DNA of 64,000 nt from Acidobacteriota bacterium (GTDB taxonomy: Bacteria > Actinomycetota > Acidimicrobiia > Acidimicrobiales > Palsa-688): positions 1 through 64,000 of the forward strand of contig JAGWSF010000120.1 of NCBI GenBank assembly GCA_028876385.1, given 5' to 3'. Numbering within the stretch: the first letter of the stretch is position 1; the number at the start of each line of letters is the position of its first letter. Shown one piece after another: positions 51,458 through 58,497 of this stretch. Position numbers and translations under genes: made by a program. The notes beneath the pieces are model-generated. The model was not told the DNA's origin. It was given only the letters and a program-made list of their open reading frames with translations, and did not search any database.

Positions 51458-51937
51458 ATGGACGCCAAGGTCATGCTCTGCGACTTCGCCGAAGTCAGCG
51501 GAGGCAAACTCTTCATCACCGGTGCCGGCATCTCGCTCCTGGCCAGCCCGGCCCCGGTCCCCCCCTATCCGGTCAACGTCTCGCTGGCCATCCTGGTATC
51601 GATTCCCTGGACCGAGACCGACGCCCAGCACGTCATGACGGTGGAGTTGATCTGCGAGGCTTCGGGCGCCCAGCAGCGGGTGATGCTGAGCGACCAGTTG
51701 CCCGAGGGGCACGACCCCGCCGACATGGGGATGATCGTGTTCATCTTCTCGGCCATGCGGCTGCCGACCATGGTCGACGGTGACGAGTCGTCCATGCCCG
51801 TATCGATCCCCCTGTTCGGGCTGCCCCTGCCCGAGCTCGGTCCGTATTTCTTCAGCGTCCGCATCGACGGCCGGGAGATGGATCGGGCGTCGTTCCGGCT
51901 GATCCCCCGCCAAGCGGTGCCGGCCGAGCAGCAGTAG
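51458..51937 (+). CDS. DUF6941-like conserved protein
   Basis: 159 residues. MDAKVMLCDFAEVSGGKLFITGAGIS then PVNVSLAILVSIPWTETD is the pattern of a small beta-rich family (DUF6941) widespread in actinobacteria and without known function. The end, LGPYFFSVRIDGREMDRASFRLI, completes a beta sandwich. No catalytic motif. Single gene. Confidence 0.7.
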   Translation: MDAKVMLCDFAEVSGGKLFITGAGISLLASPAPVPPYPVNVSLAILVSIPWTETDAQHVMTVELICEASGAQQRVMLSDQLPEGHDPADMGMIVFIFSAMRLPTMVDGDESSMPVSIPLFGLPLPELGPYFFSVRIDGREMDRASFRLIPRQAVPAEQQ

Positions 51938-51972: not shown

Positions 51973-52112
51973 ACGGAGCTCAACAAACTGCTCAAAATTC
52001 TCTAACCCACATAAAAGCCGAAAATCTCGCTCAACTGCGCCAGGCGGCCCGCCGAGACGAGCTTTGGAGGGGCCATCCGGGTCCCTTCGGACACTCACGG
52101 AGCAGCTGACCA

Positions 52113-53531
52113 TTGGCCATTCGGGACCTCCACGACGGCGCGGAGACGATCATCACCGGTCTTCACGCCCGCCTGGCGGTCATCGCCGCCGATCCCGATC
52201 AGCGCCGGCGTCTGCGCCACGCCGTCAGCTCGACCCCCGGCGTGCGGGTCGTCGACGCAGCGGCCGTTGACGCCCTGCGGCGACGACGCGATGGCGGAGC
52301 CGCCGTCCACGCCCAGAGCCTCGACGGTCTGGAGGAGCGCGTCGCCCGGTTCCGCCAGCTGCGCGACCAGGCCGGGGAGGCGCTGGTGCAGGCCGTGGCG
52401 GGAGTGGAGGCGTCCCTCGGCGCCCTCGACGACTTCGACCAGGCCGAACGCGAGCTCGAGCGGGCTCAGCTGCTCCGGGATCAGGCGAGTGCCGCCGAGG
52501 CGCTCGAGGCCCGCCGTCTGGCCGAGGTCCTCGAACGCCGCCTCCGCCTCACCGAGCAGCGGCGCGACGCCATCCGGGTGATCGAGGACATCGAGGCGGG
52601 AGGCCCGGCCCGTCGTTCCCCGGAGCTGCGCCGCCAGATTGCCGACATGGAGGCCGGTCTGGCTCGGGCCGAGGCCGAGCAGACCCGCGCCGAGCGGGCG
52701 TCCGAGGCCACCCTGCACCAGGCCCGGGAGAGCCGCCAGACCGCCTGTGCCGAGCTCGAGCGGGCCGACCGCATGCTGCGCGCCGACCTGCCCGGTGCGC
52801 CGGGGGTGTCGACCCACGACTGGCCCACAGGACCTCCCCTCCCGGTGCTGATCGCCGAGCGCCGGGACCGCATAACCGCCGTACTGGCCGAGCGCTACGA
52901 GGCCCGCGCCCAGGCCCGGGCCGCGGTGGACGAGGCCAGCTCGGGGTTGCGCGACGCCGAGCGGGAACTGGCCGAGGCCCGGGCGACAGCAGCCGAGCTC
53001 GACTCGGTCTCGCTGATCGAGAGCCTCTTCGGCTTCGACGATCCTGAGCTCGCTCGGCGCGGCGGGGGCCGGCCCACGGTCGTCTGCGACGAGGCTTTCA
53101 CCGGCGTCGCCCCGTCGGTCGTGGCCTCGGTGGTGGAGCACGTCGTGCTCGGGTCCGACGTCCAGGTGGTCATCCTCACCGAGGACCCCGCCCTGGTCGT
53201 TTGGGCCGCCGGTCTCGACCCCGAGACGGGGGTGCTGGTCACCGTGGCCGGCCCCGGCACCGGTCCCGGCACTGTCGATGAGGCGCCGGGGCGGGCCCCG
53301 GCCGGGCACGGCGGGTCGGCCACCATCACGCCGCTGCGCCCGCTGACCGGTGGCTCCCCTCTGAGCCGCCCCTCCCCGCTGCCGGCCCCCCAGTCGGCGT
53401 CGTCGCCTCCGCCGGTCACCCTCCCCGGGCGCGACGGGCTCGGCCCCACCCCCCGGTCGGACGCCCGCGACCGGATTCCTTTCACCGACAGCTTCAAGGA
53501 GCCCCTCCGTCATGTTTCGACGTATCCGTAG
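52113..53531 (+). CDS. Coiled-coil SMC/ABC-like protein with degenerate ATP site
   Basis: 472 residues from TTG 52113 (weak Shine-Dalgarno, start uncertain). The N-terminus TIITGLHARLAVIAADPD sits where SMC/ABC proteins have a Walker A loop, but no GxxGxGK is present. Residues about 60-305 are a long coiled coil. PTVVCDEAFTGVAPSVVASVV then looks like Walker B and D-loop, and VQVVILTEDPALVVWAAGL like the H-loop strand. A Pro/Ser-rich tail overlaps the sensor kinase start by 20 bp. The tight link suggests work with the conservon, but the function is unknown. Confidence 0.65.
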   Translation: MAIRDLHDGAETIITGLHARLAVIAADPDQRRRLRHAVSSTPGVRVVDAAAVDALRRRRDGGAAVHAQSLDGLEERVARFRQLRDQAGEALVQAVAGVEASLGALDDFDQAERELERAQLLRDQASAAEALEARRLAEVLERRLRLTEQRRDAIRVIEDIEAGGPARRSPELRRQIADMEAGLARAEAEQTRAERASEATLHQARESRQTACAELERADRMLRADLPGAPGVSTHDWPTGPPLPVLIAERRDRITAVLAERYEARAQARAAVDEASSGLRDAERELAEARATAAELDSVSLIESLFGFDDPELARRGGGRPTVVCDEAFTGVAPSVVASVVEHVVLGSDVQVVILTEDPALVVWAAGLDPETGVLVTVAGPGTGPGTVDEAPGRAPAGHGGSATITPLRPLTGGSPLSRPSPLPAPQSASSPPPVTLPGRDGLGPTPRSDARDRIPFTDSFKEPLRHVSTYP

Positions 53532-55884
53532 CCGTCTGATCGCGGCGTTCGCCGTCCCGTTGGCCCTCCTTGTGACCGTGACCAGCGTGGCGGCCTGGGG
53601 GAGCTGGCGCAGTGAGCAGACCGTCTCCCAGCAGTCCAGCCTGGCGCTGGCCGCCAACGGGCCTTCGGGGATCGTCAACGCCCTGCAGAACGAGCGCGAC
53701 GAAGCCACCGCCGACCTCGTCGGCCTCGCCGCCGAGGCCCACCTGGCGGTGAAGAGCAACGCCGACGCCAGGCACCAGACGGACGTGGCGCTGGCCGCCT
53801 TCCGCTCATCGGTGGTCTCCGCCGGCGGGTCCACCGAGAAGATCTTCCAGCCCGCGCTCGACTCCCTGTCGCAGCTCGGAGCGGTCCGTAGCCAGGTGGA
53901 CGCCTACCAGGGGACGCGCTCGCTGGCCGATGCCGGGGCCCGGGCCGTCGACGTTGCCGCCTTCGACCAGTACGCCGGGCTGATCGACGGTTTCCTCCGG
54001 GCCATCGCCGTGGCCCCCCAGTACATCAGTGACCCCTCGCTGCGCTCCAGCGTCGAGACCCTCGACCTGTTCCTCAACCAGTCCGAGGCCCTCACCCTGG
54101 TCGCCCAGCAGATGTTCTCGGCCTCGTTGCTCCACGCCACCAACCCGGCCGGCTCCATCGTCCCCGGTGCCGACCTCGGGGCATTCGAGTCGTGGACCCA
54201 GCGCCTCCAGGCCTACACGTCGGGGCCGGACGGACCGGTGGTGACCGGGGTCGTCGCCGGAGCCGGTCGCGCCGCGGCGGCCATGACCCCGTTCGTCCAC
54301 GACGTGATCGGCGGCCAGCCGCTCAACGTGCTGGCCTTCACCCAGGCCCTGGCCCCGATCGGCAACGTCTGGCAGGGCGCCGCCGTCACCGTGGGCCAGC
54401 ACATATCGGCGAGGGCCGCCTCGTTGCGTACCTCGGCGGAGCTGCGGGCCATCCTGTACGGGCTGGGCGCCCTGGCCTCGGTGCTGCTCGTGGTCTTCAT
54501 CCTGTTGCGGGTCAGCCGCTCCATATCGGCGCCCCTCACCCGGCTGGCCTCTGACGCCCAACGTATGGCCGACCACGACCTGCCGGCCGCGGTCGAGGCC
54601 ATCTTCAGCCCGGCGGCGGGTGGGGCCCCCTCGGAGGAGTCGGCCGACTCGGGCGCCGGGTCCCATCCGGTGGACTCCACCGACGGCCTGGCCGAGGTCC
54701 AGGAGGTCGCCGGAGCGCTCGAAGCCCTGCAGCGGCGGGCCCTCGAGCTGGCCACCGAACAGGCCACCCTGCGGCGCAAGGTCGCCGACGCCTACGTCAA
54801 CCTGGGTCGGCGCAACCAGAACCTGGTGAGCCGCCAGCTGGAGCTGATCAGCCAGATCGAGCAGCAGGAGGAGGACCCCGCCACCCTCGAGGAGCTGTTC
54901 CGTCTCGACCACCTCACCACCCGGATGCGCCGCCACGCCGAGTCGCTGCTGGTCATCGCCGGATCCGGGGCGCTCCGTCCCTGGTCGGAGGCGGCCAGCG
55001 CCGTCGACGCGGTGCGGGCCGCCTCGGCCGAGGTCGAGGACTATCAACGTCTGCGGCTCCACCACTTCGACCACGCCGTGGTTTCGGCCACCGCCACCAC
55101 CGACCTCGTGCACATCCTGGCCGAGCTGATGGAGAACGCGCTGAGCTTCTCCCCGCCCCACGCCTCGGTGGGGCTCTACGGGAGGGCCCTCGACAGCGGC
55201 TACACCATCAGCGTGGTCGATGCGGGTATCGGCCTGACCCCCGAAGCACGCGACGCCGCCAACCGGCGGCTGGCGTCGGGCGGGGACCTCGACGACGCCG
55301 CCAACCGGTGCCTCGGCCTCCTCGTGGCCGGGCGCCTGGCCTCCCGTCACGGGATCCAGGTGACGCTGCACGACTCCGACGCGGGTGGGGTCACCGCCCG
55401 GGTCAGTATCCCCGCCGCCCTCATCGAGTCGTCGGTCACCGGACCGAGCGAGGTCGCCTCCAGCCCGGTCCCTGTCGAGTTGCCCACCGCCGACCCGGGC
55501 GCTGCCGCGGCGGCCGGCGTGTTCCCCGGCTCCGCGGCGGGCGGACATCTCCCCCGGTCCGCGGCGCCGGTGGCGCGATCGGTCAGCCCCGCTCCCGGTG
55601 GGGCTCTACCCCGGCCCGACGCCGCCGAGCCGTCCCCCAACGAGAGCCGCTTCGAGGTGGCACCGGTGGTCGCCCCCACCCTGGCCGAGGCGGCCGGCCC
55701 GCCGCTCGCCCCCGGCGGCCTGCCGCGGCGCATACCGGGCGCGACCCTCGGACCGACCGATGACAGCCTGCGCAGGGATCGCACCCCGGCCCCGCAGACC
55801 CCCTGGGCCGTCTCCTACGCCCTCACCGACTACCTGAACAGCCGCGCCGAGCCCCCGTCGGGCCGGCCGCCGACGGAGGCCTGA
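53512..55884 (+). CDS. Conservon sensor histidine kinase with NIT domain (CvnA-like)
   Basis: 790 residues. TM1 (about 8-30), an extracytoplasmic helical NIT-type sensor region (about 50-310), TM2 (about 313-335), HAMP-like linker, then a coiled coil and a DHp-like helix with LFRLDHLTTRMRRHAESLL (phospho-acceptor His likely in LDHL). HATPase boxes are LAELMENALSFSPP, SVVDAGIGLTPE and RCLGLLVAGRLASRHGI. A Pro/Ala-rich tail of about 140 residues ends the protein. It begins the kinase/roadblock/DUF742/GTPase set and is followed 2 bp later by the roadblock gene. Confidence 0.92.
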   Translation: MFRRIRSRLIAAFAVPLALLVTVTSVAAWGSWRSEQTVSQQSSLALAANGPSGIVNALQNERDEATADLVGLAAEAHLAVKSNADARHQTDVALAAFRSSVVSAGGSTEKIFQPALDSLSQLGAVRSQVDAYQGTRSLADAGARAVDVAAFDQYAGLIDGFLRAIAVAPQYISDPSLRSSVETLDLFLNQSEALTLVAQQMFSASLLHATNPAGSIVPGADLGAFESWTQRLQAYTSGPDGPVVTGVVAGAGRAAAAMTPFVHDVIGGQPLNVLAFTQALAPIGNVWQGAAVTVGQHISARAASLRTSAELRAILYGLGALASVLLVVFILLRVSRSISAPLTRLASDAQRMADHDLPAAVEAIFSPAAGGAPSEESADSGAGSHPVDSTDGLAEVQEVAGALEALQRRALELATEQATLRRKVADAYVNLGRRNQNLVSRQLELISQIEQQEEDPATLEELFRLDHLTTRMRRHAESLLVIAGSGALRPWSEAASAVDAVRAASAEVEDYQRLRLHHFDHAVVSATATTDLVHILAELMENALSFSPPHASVGLYGRALDSGYTISVVDAGIGLTPEARDAANRRLASGGDLDDAANRCLGLLVAGRLASRHGIQVTLHDSDAGGVTARVSIPAALIESSVTGPSEVASSPVPVELPTADPGAAAAAGVFPGSAAGGHLPRSAAPVARSVSPAPGGALPRPDAAEPSPNESRFEVAPVVAPTLAEAAGPPLAPGGLPRRIPGATLGPTDDSLRRDRTPAPQTPWAVSYALTDYLNSRAEPPSGRPPTEA

Positions 55885-55886
55885 CC

Positions 55887-56309
55887 ATGCTCGGAACCAC
55901 TGCCGACGCCCGCACCTTCAACTGGCTGCTGGACAACTTCGTGGACACCAGCGCCGGCGTATCCGACGCCGTGGCGGTGTCGTCCGACGGGCTGCTGATG
56001 GCCACGTCGCGCACTCTCGACCGGGCCGGGGCCGAGCGGGTCGCGGCCATCATCTCGGGACTGGTCGGGCTGGGCCGGGGCGCGTCCCGGGCCTTCGGCT
56101 GGGAGCCGCTCCAGCAGGTGATAGTGGCCATGGGCGGAGGCTTCCTATTCGTGTCGACCATCTCGGACGGCAGCAGCCTCGGCGTGGTGGCCGAAGCGTC
56201 GTGCGACACCGGGCTGGTCGGCTACCAGACGTCGGTGCTGATCGAGCGGATCGGAGCGCTTCTCACCCCCGACCTCGTCGCCGAACTGCGATCGGCGGTC
56301 CTGCGGTGA
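55887..56309 (+). CDS. Roadblock/LC7-domain protein (CvnB-like)
   Basis: 140 residues. NWLLDNFVDTSAGVSDAVAVSSDGLLMA, AAIISGLVGLGRGAS and VIVAMGGGFLFVSTISDGSSLGVVAEASCDTG follow the alpha/beta roadblock fold. Such proteins act with the small GTPase, as in MglB/MglA, and may be a GAP or scaffold. Its stop overlaps the DUF742 gene start (GTGA). Confidence 0.93.
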   Translation: MLGTTADARTFNWLLDNFVDTSAGVSDAVAVSSDGLLMATSRTLDRAGAERVAAIISGLVGLGRGASRAFGWEPLQQVIVAMGGGFLFVSTISDGSSLGVVAEASCDTGLVGYQTSVLIERIGALLTPDLVAELRSAVLR

Positions 56310-56653
56310 CGGGGGCGGTGACCGGGGCGGGCGGAGGCCTGGTCCGGCCGTTCATCATCACCGGGGGCCGGACCGCCACCTCCCGGGCCGATCTGCGCTG
56401 GGAATCACTCGTCGAGGTCACCGCCTCGGTGGTCGCCGAACCCACCTCCGAACAGGCGGCCATACTCGCCGAGGCCGTCACGCCGGTATCCATCGCCGAG
56501 CTGTCGGCCCACCTGCGCCTACCCCAGGCTGTGGTCGCCATCGTGGTGGAGGACCTCCTGGAAATGGACGCCGTACGCGTCCACCAGACCGACCCGGTGG
56601 AGATCGAGCTCTCCGCCCTGACCCGGATGATCGACCGTGTCCGCAGCCTTTGA
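56306..56653 (+). CDS. DUF742 protein (CvnC-like)
   Basis: 115 residues from GTG 56306, coupled to the roadblock gene. LVRPFIITGGRTATSRADLRWESLVEV is the typical DUF742 start. The rest is a winged-helix-like region (TPVSIAELSAHLRLPQAVVAIVVEDLLEMDAVRVH). It could bind DNA or link the kinase to the GTPase. Its end overlaps the GTPase gene by 17 bp. Confidence 0.92.
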   Translation: MTGAVTGAGGGLVRPFIITGGRTATSRADLRWESLVEVTASVVAEPTSEQAAILAEAVTPVSIAELSAHLRLPQAVVAIVVEDLLEMDAVRVHQTDPVEIELSALTRMIDRVRSL

Positions 56654-57215
56654 CGCCCCGCGCCACGTGATGGCCGCCAAGTTCGTCATCGCCGGGGGCT
56701 TCGGCGTGGGGAAGACCACTTTCGTCGGAGCCATCAGCGAGATCGACCCGCTCCAGACCGAGGCGGCCATGACCACCGTCAGCCGGGGCGTCGACGATCA
56801 CCGCGCGGTGGAGGAGAAGTCGACCACCACGGTGGCCATGGACTTCGGCCGGCTGACCGTCGACGAGTCCCTCGTCATGTACCTCTTCGGCGCACCCGGC
56901 CAGGACCGCTTCCGGTTCATGTGGGACGACCTGGTCACCGGGGCGCTCGGGGCGGTGGTGCTGGTCGACACCCGACGCCTGGCCGACTCGTTCGCTTCCA
57001 TCGACTACTTCGAGCAGCGGGGCCTGCCGTTCGTGATCGGGGTCAACCGCTTCCCCGGCACCGAGTACCACCGCCTGGTGGACGTGGTCGGCGCCCTGGG
57101 GGTCGGCCCCGAGGTGCCGGTCATGGACTGCGACGCGAGGGTGCGGGCCTCGGCCCGCGACGTCATCCTCGCCCTCCTCGAGATGCTCGTCGCCCGCCTC
57201 GTGCCGTCCCGCTGA
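56637..57215 (+). CDS. Small Ras-like GTPase of the conservon (CvnD-like)
   Basis: 192 residues from GTG 56637. FVIAGGFGVGKTTFVGAI is the P-loop. YLFGAPGQDRFRFMWDDLV is the G3 region with Pro-Gly-Gln in place of the usual DxxGQ order. GVNRFPGTEY replaces NKxD, as is common in CvnD proteins. It would switch with the roadblock protein on the membrane. It ends the core conservon; the P450 gene follows 82 bp later. Confidence 0.93.
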   Translation: MSAAFDAPRHVMAAKFVIAGGFGVGKTTFVGAISEIDPLQTEAAMTTVSRGVDDHRAVEEKSTTTVAMDFGRLTVDESLVMYLFGAPGQDRFRFMWDDLVTGALGAVVLVDTRRLADSFASIDYFEQRGLPFVIGVNRFPGTEYHRLVDVVGALGVGPEVPVMDCDARVRASARDVILALLEMLVARLVPSR

Positions 57216-57297: not shown

Positions 57298-58497
57298 ATG
57301 GCCACCACCACCGAGCCTTACGTCAACCTTTTGGATCCCGACTGGTATGTCGAGCCCTGGGACGCCTACCGCTGGTTGCGGGACCAGTCTCCGGTCCACT
57401 GGGATCCGGTGCAGAAGCTGTGGGGCATCTCCCGCTACGCCGATGTTCTCCACGTCGAGAAGCGGACCGACCTCTACAGCTCCTGGCCCGGCTCGCGACC
57501 CCACACCGACCAGACCGCCGACCGCTCGATGATCAACATGGACGACCCCGATCATCAAGAGCAGCGCAAGCTGGTCGTGCGGAGGTTCACCCCCCGGGCC
57601 GTGCGCAGCCACGAGGAGCGGGTACGCGAACTGGCGGACTCCCTCATCGACGAGGCCACCGCCGGCGGGGCCCGCAGCTTCGAGGTCGTCGACCGGGTGG
57701 CGTCACGGCTTCCGGCCATGGTGATCGCCGAGATGCTCGGCTACGAACCGGACCAGTGGCCGGTGATCCGCAAGGTGTCGGAGGACACCATGCACAATGC
57801 CGGCCAGACTCCCGCCGACGGGTCCCCGTTCAGCTCGAGACCGGAGTCCGAGGCCGCGCTCAACGAGTGGGCGGCGGTGACCATGGAGCTCATCGCCAAG
57901 CGGCGGGCCGAACCGCGCGACGACCTGGTGTCGGTGTGGTGTCACAGCGAGACCGACGGCGAGCCCTGGGACGACGGTCGGGTTCTCGAGGAGACCATCC
58001 TGGTGGTCGACGGCGGGGCCGAGACGACCCGCACGGTGATCGGCTCGATCACCCGCGAGTTGGCTCTCCGGCCCGACATCCAGCGTCAGCTGAGGGAGAA
58101 CCCGGGGCTGCTCACCAACGCCGTCGAGGAGTTCATCCGGTGGGTTTCACCCATCTTGAACATGCGCCGCACGGCCACGACCGACCACGAGCTGAACGGC
58201 CAGCACATCGAGGAGGGCCAGGAGCTGCTCCTGCTCTACGCCTCGGCCAACCGCGACGAGCGCGTCTACGACCGTCCGGAGGAGTTCGACGTGACGCGCG
58301 ACCGCAACCATCACGTCGCGTTCGGGTTCGGTACCCATGTCTGCCTGGGAGCGTCACTGGCCCGCCTCGAGCTGCGCGTCGTCTTCGAGCAGCTGCTGGC
58401 CCGCCTCCCGGAATGGCGGCTCGTCCCAGGCACCGAGCCGCGCATCATCCCAGCGACCTTCACCCGGGCCTACGACGCGGTGCACATCGAGTTCTGA
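57298..58497 (+). CDS. Cytochrome P450 (conservon-associated)
   Basis: 399 residues. The I-helix reads VVDGGAETTRTVIG, the K-helix VEEFIRWVSP (ExxR), and the haem loop FGFGTHVCLGASLARLELR. MINMDDPDHQEQRKLVVRRFTPRAV is typical of the CYP125/142-like steroid or terpenoid group. P450 genes often end actinobacterial conservons (CvnE), and the position supports that here. Its 3' 144 bp are antisense to the open frame of the ctaG-like gene. Confidence 0.94.
   Translation: MATTTEPYVNLLDPDWYVEPWDAYRWLRDQSPVHWDPVQKLWGISRYADVLHVEKRTDLYSSWPGSRPHTDQTADRSMINMDDPDHQEQRKLVVRRFTPRAVRSHEERVRELADSLIDEATAGGARSFEVVDRVASRLPAMVIAEMLGYEPDQWPVIRKVSEDTMHNAGQTPADGSPFSSRPESEAALNEWAAVTMELIAKRRAEPRDDLVSVWCHSETDGEPWDDGRVLEETILVVDGGAETTRTVIGSITRELALRPDIQRQLRENPGLLTNAVEEFIRWVSPILNMRRTATTDHELNGQHIEEGQELLLLYASANRDERVYDRPEEFDVTRDRNHHVAFGFGTHVCLGASLARLELRVVFEQLLARLPEWRLVPGTEPRIIPATFTRAYDAVHIEF

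What the first reader, a model, noticed from the sequence alone, without database searches (positions are those of the whole stretch)
52113..57215. Conservon with an added SMC-like coiled-coil protein lacking Walker A
The kinase/roadblock/DUF742/GTPase set is a known actinobacterial module. Here a 472-residue gene overlaps the kinase start by 20 bp. It encodes a long coiled coil with Walker-B-like CDEAF and an H-loop-like strand but no GxxGxGK at the N-terminal position. A degenerate SMC/ABC-type subunit tied to the conservon could be an unrecognised component, for example a membrane or DNA scaffold for the GTPase switch.
Basis: partly seen in the sequence, partly recalled or inferred. Interest (0 to 1): 0.7.

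Follow-up and report, generated by a model that had tools for sequence, protein, structure and literature searches.

The report
Dead SMC-like partner of G-protein operon
A bacterial small-GTPase signalling operon (a conservon) carries an extra, previously undescribed gene for a coiled-coil protein that descends from YhaN/SMC-type ATPases but has lost its ATP-binding motif; across one bacterial family the gene is always found with the operon, so it is probably a new kind of accessory part of that switch.

Summary
The 472-aa gene (52113-53531) is real, overlaps the CvnA-like kinase by 20 bp, and has no Walker A in any possible upstream extension. Thirteen family members (window included) all lack Walker A, and wherever the 3' side is assembled the next gene is a conservon kinase. 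In that bacterial family (f1) the gene and the conservon GTPase are present or absent together (13 of 13 against 0 of 16). More distant relatives (~850 aa, family f23) also precede a kinase. Conservons of other families in the order lack it.

Profile-profile comparison links it, through membrane-hairpin homologues that also lack Walker A, to YhaN-like (AAA_27) ATPases with intact GPNEAGKS. Both head lobes match; reversed and shuffled controls do not. Walker A, the ABC signature and the H-loop His are gone; the Walker B Asp is kept. It is therefore a pseudo-ATPase.

Twelve of 13 genes carry an upstream sigma28/WhiG-type element, and type IV pilus genes lie near the conservon in several relatives.

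Best reading: a third class of conservon accessory protein, besides the P450 and GAF types, acting as a non-catalytic coiled-coil adaptor of the kinase. Partner, function and pilus link are inferred. The structure model was too shallow to show the head.

The parts
52030..52055 (+). sigma28/WhiG-like promoter element CTCAACTGCGCCAGGCGGCCCGCCGA
   Evidence: The single match in the window is not significant by itself (0.93 expected per 64 kb), but the element lies in the same upstream region in the congeners L017 and L018 and in 12 of 13 homologues (0.0074 expected per 220 bp).
52099..52102 (+). GGAG ribosome-binding site of the pseudo-ATPase gene
   Evidence: Sequence; GGAG recurs a similar short distance 5' of the aligned start in most relatives.
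52113..53531 (+). gene of the Walker-A-less YhaN/SMC-like coiled-coil protein (472 aa)
52113..52256 (+). N-terminal lobe, residues 1-48; residues 25-35 (AADPDQRRRLR, 52185-52217) stand where related ATPases have GPNEAGKS
   Evidence: Alignment of relatives; hhalign registers the window family to the membrane-hairpin family (1-30 with 1-31, weak, E=0.014) and the hairpin family to YhaN-like ATPases (1-188 with 1-197, E=5.6e-6); predicted strand-strand-helix.
52257..53030 (+). coiled-coil arm, residues 49-306: ascending helix 49-162, tip near 163-169, descending helix 170-223 and 243-306 with a conserved W-x-x-G-x-PLP joint at 224-242
   Evidence: AlphaFold2 secondary structure, high confidence in this part; invariant W237 G240 P242 L243 P244. 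Pairing of the helices as one hairpin is inferred from their lengths.
53070..53216 (+). C-terminal lobe, residues 320-368: TVVCDEAF (Walker-B-like, 53076-53099) and QVVILTEDP (H-loop position, His replaced, 53163-53189), then conserved W-A
   Evidence: Invariant D326, Q351, T356, W364, A365 in 13 sequences; hhalign to the membrane-hairpin family E=1.6e-9.
53238..53528 (+). Pro/Gly/Ser-rich disordered tail, residues 376-472, found only in this genus
   Evidence: alignment; pLDDT 25-40.
53512..53531 (+). 20-bp overlap with the kinase gene
   Evidence: genus-specific.
53512..55884 (+). CvnA-like sensor kinase (790 aa)
   Evidence: PF02518 6.5e-11, weak HAMP; homologues next to the relatives carry PF08376 NIT.
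55887..56309 (+). CvnB-like roadblock/LC7 protein
   Evidence: PF03259 2.8e-17.
56297..56653 (+). CvnC-like DUF742 protein
   Evidence: PF05331 9.7e-19.
56637..57215 (+). CvnD-like small GTPase
   Evidence: PF03029 3.2e-25; GGFGVGKT P-loop.
57298..58497 (+). cytochrome P450, CvnE-like position
   Evidence: PF00067 6.6e-30; same place in both congeners.

Best explanation
The gene encodes a pseudo-ATPase: a coiled-coil protein with two vestigial head lobes, descended from YhaN-like (AAA_27) SMC-type ATPases, that no longer binds or hydrolyses ATP in the ABC manner. In this lineage it is a dedicated accessory component of the actinobacterial G-protein system (conservon), made from the same operon as the CvnA kinase and acting with it. 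The most likely mechanism is that it serves as a rigid cytoplasmic adaptor: the head lobes or the base of the arm contact the kinase's cytoplasmic part and set its activity, or hold kinase, roadblock and GTPase together, much as CvnF8 modulates CvnA8 in Streptomyces but with an unrelated fold. Transcription probably comes from a sigma28/WhiG-type promoter, which would make the module part of a surface-organelle programme (type IV pili, and flagella in this genus), possibly c-di-GMP-gated. Shown: gene, overlap, motif losses, homology, gene linkage, shared promoter-like element. Inferred: loss of ATP binding, physical partner, adaptor role, promoter activity, link to pili.
For: Motif losses in all 13 family members, with aligned starts and mostly conserved RBS. 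In all 12 loci that can be assessed the kinase is the next gene. In family f1 the GTPase and this gene co-occur in 13 of 13 assessable genomes and are both absent in 16. A longer form precedes a kinase in five f23 genomes. hhalign: to the f23 form 3.2e-18, to the membrane-hairpin form 1.6e-9; hairpin form to YhaN-like ATPases 6.5e-9 (C lobe) and 5.6e-6 (N lobe); reversed or shuffled controls 0.03 or worse. YhaN-like members have GPNEAGKS and AAA_27 at 6.5e-8. Promoter-like element upstream of 12/13 genes versus 0.0074 expected per 220 bp, the same element before genes that read as fliS and flhA and before a GGDEF gene, a FliA/WhiG sigma gene in the genome at 271 bits. Type IV pilus genes near conservons of relatives. 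Precedent that an accessory protein stimulates the kinase: PMC13343842; WhiG controls type IV pili in Rubrobacter: PMC8325347.
Against: No interaction or function is tested. The membrane-hairpin relatives share the promoter element but are not next to conservons, so the common denominator could be the sigma regulon. Conservons of other families in the order do without the gene. In three f23 genomes the neighbour is a kinase-like gene without roadblock or GTPase. Reported accessory proteins accompany CvnA homologues lacking a sensor domain, whereas here the kinase has an extracytoplasmic region. The direct profile match to YhaN-like ATPases is weak (0.0019); homology rests on intermediates. The structure model is poor in the head lobes and its PDB matches are coiled coils only. 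PilM presence does not discriminate genomes with and without the conservon.
Confidence: 0.55

Rival explanations
1. It is a member of the sigma28/WhiG regulon that happens to share a transcript with the conservon: a surface-organelle (type IV pilus or envelope) scaffold in its own right, co-regulated with but not part of the G-protein system.
For: Membrane-hairpin relatives without a conservon neighbour carry the same promoter element (6 of 9); conservons of relatives lie by prepilin peptidase, pilins, PilM.
Against: Close relatives are never found without a conservon kinase next door where the contig allows a check, and are absent where the GTPase is absent.
Confidence: 0.25
2. It is a GTPase regulator, for example a coiled-coil GEF or GAP cofactor for the conservon GTPase rather than a kinase partner.
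For: Co-occurrence with the GTPase in f1. Some of the top coiled-coil hits in PDB are the Rab GEF SH3BP5, but those reflect coiled-coil geometry at E of 0.0035 or worse and are not evidence of relationship.
Against: In three f23 genomes the longer form sits beside a kinase-like gene with no GTPase or roadblock gene in the 13-16 kb loci read.
Confidence: 0.12
3. It is still a nucleotide-dependent SMC/ABC motor that binds ATP by an unusual loop and acts on DNA.
For: The Walker B Asp is invariant, and an acidic residue follows it in the aligned members; SMC-like order of secondary structure.
Against: No P-loop Lys/Ser, no ABC signature between arm and Walker B strand, no H-loop His in any relative; one divergent member (G020) has lost the Walker B motif as well.
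Confidence: 0.05

Closest known systems
Conservon / actinobacterial G-protein system (CvnA-D; PMC13343842, PMC8510531)
   Same: Same four core genes in the same order, plus a P450 in the CvnE position.
   Different: Carries an upstream gene that is neither the P450 (CvnE) nor the GAF (CvnF) type; its kinase homologues carry a sensor region, while CvnE/CvnF were reported with sensor-less kinases.
YhaN / AAA_27 (PF13514) SMC-like ATPases with a membrane hairpin in the coiled coil
   Same: Two half-heads at the ends of a coiled coil; profile homology of both lobes through intermediates; conserved W-A after the H-loop position.
   Different: No Walker A, no signature motif, no H-loop His, no membrane hairpin, about half the length.
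CvnF8 of Streptomyces coelicolor (PMC13343842)
   Same: Accessory gene of a conservon; presumed to act at the kinase.
   Different: CvnF8 is a GAF-domain protein; no sequence relationship found (no GAF match).
MglA/MglB polarity module of Myxococcus (PMC9481161) and WhiG control of type IV pili in Rubrobacter (PMC8325347)
   Same: Small GTPase plus roadblock linked to type IV pili; sigma28-type promoter control.
   Different: No CvnA kinase, DUF742 or pseudo-ATPase in the Myxococcus module (own knowledge); the pilus link here is gene neighbourhood only.

Membership tests
Conservon / actinobacterial G-protein system | CvnA (kinase-like), CvnB (roadblock), CvnC (DUF742), CvnD (GTPase) in one operon | tested here: met
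   PF02518, PF03259, PF05331, PF03029 in order, overlapping or adjacent genes.
CvnE/CvnF accessory proteins (the 472-aa gene) | P450 or GAF domain | tested here: not met
   No Pfam or NCBIfam match other than chance level.
CvnE/CvnF accessory proteins (the 472-aa gene) | Accompanies a CvnA without sensor domain | tested here: inconclusive
   Kinases beside relatives carry NIT, which departs from the rule; the window kinase has a long region between two putative TM segments but no NIT match at E below 1.
YhaN/SMC-type ABC ATPases | Walker A (GxxxxGK[ST]) near the N-terminus | tested here: not met
   Absent in all 13 family members; upstream in-frame stop in the window.
YhaN/SMC-type ABC ATPases | ABC signature motif before Walker B | tested here: not met
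   Only about 16 residues between arm and Walker B strand, no LSxG.
YhaN/SMC-type ABC ATPases | Walker B hhhhD[DE] | tested here: met
   D326 invariant, next residue D/E in the aligned set.
YhaN/SMC-type ABC ATPases | Half-heads at both ends of a coiled-coil hairpin | tested here: inconclusive
   Order of strands and helices fits, but head confidence is roughly 45-60 and PDB matches are coiled coils only.
YhaN/SMC-type ABC ATPases | Detectable sequence homology | tested here: met
   Transitive: window family to hairpin family 1.6e-9, hairpin family to YhaN-like 6.5e-9 and 5.6e-6, controls negative; direct match only 0.0019.
Accessory component of the conservon switch | Genetic or physical interaction with core proteins | not testable with these tools
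   Gene linkage only.
Sigma28/WhiG regulon | -35/-10 element of the flagellar type upstream (consensus TAAA / GCCGATAA) | tested here: inconclusive
   Family-wide element CTCAA-N14-16-SCCGA in 12/13; the window copy departs from the consensus (GCCGAGAC); no transcript data.

The most novel reading that the evidence does not exclude
An ATPase-dead, YhaN/SMC-derived coiled-coil protein is a dedicated third class of accessory subunit of bacterial G-protein systems: it couples a CvnA kinase and an MglA-like GTPase to type IV pili under WhiG (c-di-GMP) control, and it belongs to a larger, undescribed family of Walker-A-less membrane-hairpin proteins found in many families of this order.
Probability: 0.3. 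Interest if true: 0.75.

Novelty: new variant of a known kind. Interest (0 to 1): 0.6.

Why it matters
Signal flow in conservons is poorly understood, and only P450 and GAF accessory types are described in the paper read here (PMC13343842). A third, unrelated accessory type with strict co-occurrence in a lineage gives a new handle on what the kinase responds to or touches. The wider family shows SMC/YhaN-type heads turned into pseudo-ATPases and kept across many genomes, which no domain library used here names.

Tried and rejected
Hidden Walker A through another start: rejected by the upstream stop and the aligned starts of relatives. Pfam, NCBIfam and sequence search of PDB for the 472-aa protein: chance-level hits only. 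Foldseek of the model: coiled-coil matches only. Close relatives in other genome collections: two congeners only; viral contigs: none; phylum-wide search: none outside the order. A strict promoter pattern with wrong spacing found nothing; the corrected pattern worked. In the window's own genome the strict pattern is not enriched over its control, so the promoter argument rests on relatives and on position. PilM phyletic pattern as a test of the pilus link was uninformative. A deeper alignment for structure prediction was not used because the tool admits only sequences from named sources, which left three sequences. The long antisense ORF 52095-53834 (-) is taken as a shadow of high-GC coding. 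Literature search for a described Walker-A-less SMC-like pseudo-ATPase of this kind found nothing relevant, within an incomplete library.

Full report
What is there. The 472-codon gene at 52113-53531 is preceded by an in-frame stop 6 bp upstream of its TTG and by GGAG, and it overlaps the kinase start by 20 bp. Downstream come kinase, roadblock, DUF742, GTPase and P450: a standard conservon with a CvnE-like P450. Substitutions against two congeners concentrate in third positions, with dN/dS about 0.17 and 0.37, so the frame is coding. No library names the protein.

Relatives. In the text below, P is the window's family, T the membrane-hairpin family, F the long f23 form, Y the YhaN-like ATPases. 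A search of 61 related genomes found P in 13 (window included), all in the window's bacterial family f1. Where the 3' side is assembled (12 of 13) the next gene is the CvnA-like kinase; where the contig goes on, the rest of the conservon follows. The GTPase is found in 14 of the 32 f1 genomes. Eleven of these have P by direct search, G006 by profile, G020 has an eroded copy read by eye, and in G019 the contig starts at the kinase. The 16 f1 genomes without GTPase lack P; two incomplete genomes (G010, G027) have P on short contigs. These counts are not corrected for shared ancestry.

Outside f1. F (~850 aa) precedes a kinase in five f23 genomes: with roadblock, DUF742 and GTPase in L061, on a short contig in L060, and with a short kinase-like gene and no roadblock or GTPase in L063-L065. 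Conservons read in other families of the order (about 14 loci, some with a short upstream stretch) have no such gene, and a phylum-wide search found no close member elsewhere. The 20-bp overlap is a genus trait: other genera have 92-176 bp gaps.

What the protein is. All 13 sequences lack Walker A. In its place the aligned N-terminus reads like GLHPAIAVVAANAxARAAA. The C-terminal lobe keeps an invariant Walker-B Asp and a strand ending T-[DE]-D-P in most members, followed by W-A. There is no ABC signature and no H-loop His. A profile built from P reaches a larger group in the order: T, 436-471 aa with a membrane hairpin in the middle, and 700-800 aa forms, none with Walker A. T in turn matches Y: ATPases of which two read in full have GPNEAGKS/GPNESGKS, with LSHGT before Walker B, and one matches AAA_27 at 6.5e-8. 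Profile-profile E-values: P-F 3.2e-18 (plus 1.2e-7 for the N-terminal part), P-T 1.6e-9, T-Y 6.5e-9 (C lobe) and 5.6e-6 (N lobe); controls with reversed or column-shuffled alignments gave 0.03 or worse. The N-lobe alignment places GVGRAERDGL of T on GPNEAGKSSW of Y. The conclusion is a degenerate YhaN-type head. The direct P-Y comparison is only 0.0019, so the claim is transitive.

Structure. AlphaFold2 with three sequences gave pLDDT 65.6. The coiled coil is confident: helix 49-162, then 170-223 and 243-306. The lengths (114 against 54+64) suggest one hairpin with the tip near 163-169 and a joint at the conserved W-x-x-G-x-PLP; this pairing is inference. The lobes have the expected order of strands and helices but low confidence. 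PDB matches are coiled coils without significance.

Promoter. Upstream of 12 of 13 P genes lies CTCAA-N14-16-SCCGA, at -56 to -213 from the start; 0.0074 is expected per 220 bp. Six of nine T genes have it at about -35. The same element precedes genes that I read as fliS and flhA from their sequences, and a GGDEF gene, in the window's genome or its sister, and a FliA/WhiG sigma factor is encoded (271 bits). It resembles the flagellar consensus TAAA/GCCGATAA used by WhiG, which controls type IV pili in Rubrobacter (PMC8325347). In the window the element is a weak match; alone it would not be significant, and the strict pattern is not enriched in the window's own genome.

Pili. Conservons of relatives lie by prepilin peptidase (L019, L028 by Pfam; L020, L022 by eye), by PilM or N-methylated pilins (L062, L184), and in another family by PilB, PilC and prepilin peptidase (L199). 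No pilin-like gene was seen in the window. PilM occurs with and without the conservon, so the link is neighbourhood only.

Mechanism. Recent work shows that the GAF accessory protein CvnF8 binds CvnA8 and stimulates its ATPase and autophosphorylation (PMC13343842). By position and by the f23 cases without GTPase, the most likely partner here is the kinase. I propose a non-catalytic adaptor; this is inferred. Rivals are an independent sigma-regulon scaffold, a GTPase regulator, and, least likely, a cryptic ATPase.

Noticed in passing
L066, L068, L069, L072-L074, L076, L077: A family of 436-471 aa proteins with a membrane hairpin in a coiled coil and YhaN-like lobes without Walker A occurs in many families of the order; most of these genes start about 10 nt after a GCCGA(T) element, as if leaderless, and several seem to lie just after tRNA genes (read by eye, no tRNA scan run).
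   Followed up: partly
L063:5859-9389, L064, L065: An ~850 aa Walker-A-less homologue is paired with a short (318-326 aa) HATPase_c protein without sensor, roadblock or GTPase genes in the loci read.
   Followed up: partly
L062, L184: Conservon embedded among type IV pilus genes (PilM in L062; N_methyl pilin-like genes in both).
   Followed up: partly
57298-58497: P450 in the CvnE position, kept in the congeners L017 and L200, beside a kinase that has an extracytoplasmic region; reported CvnE genes accompany sensor-less kinases.
   Followed up: no
51458-51937: DUF6941 gene directly upstream, conserved in the genus (L017, L018).
   Followed up: no
L082, L104, L106: Sigma28-type elements before genes that read as fliS and flhA and before a GGDEF gene, suggesting flagella in this genus.
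   Followed up: partly
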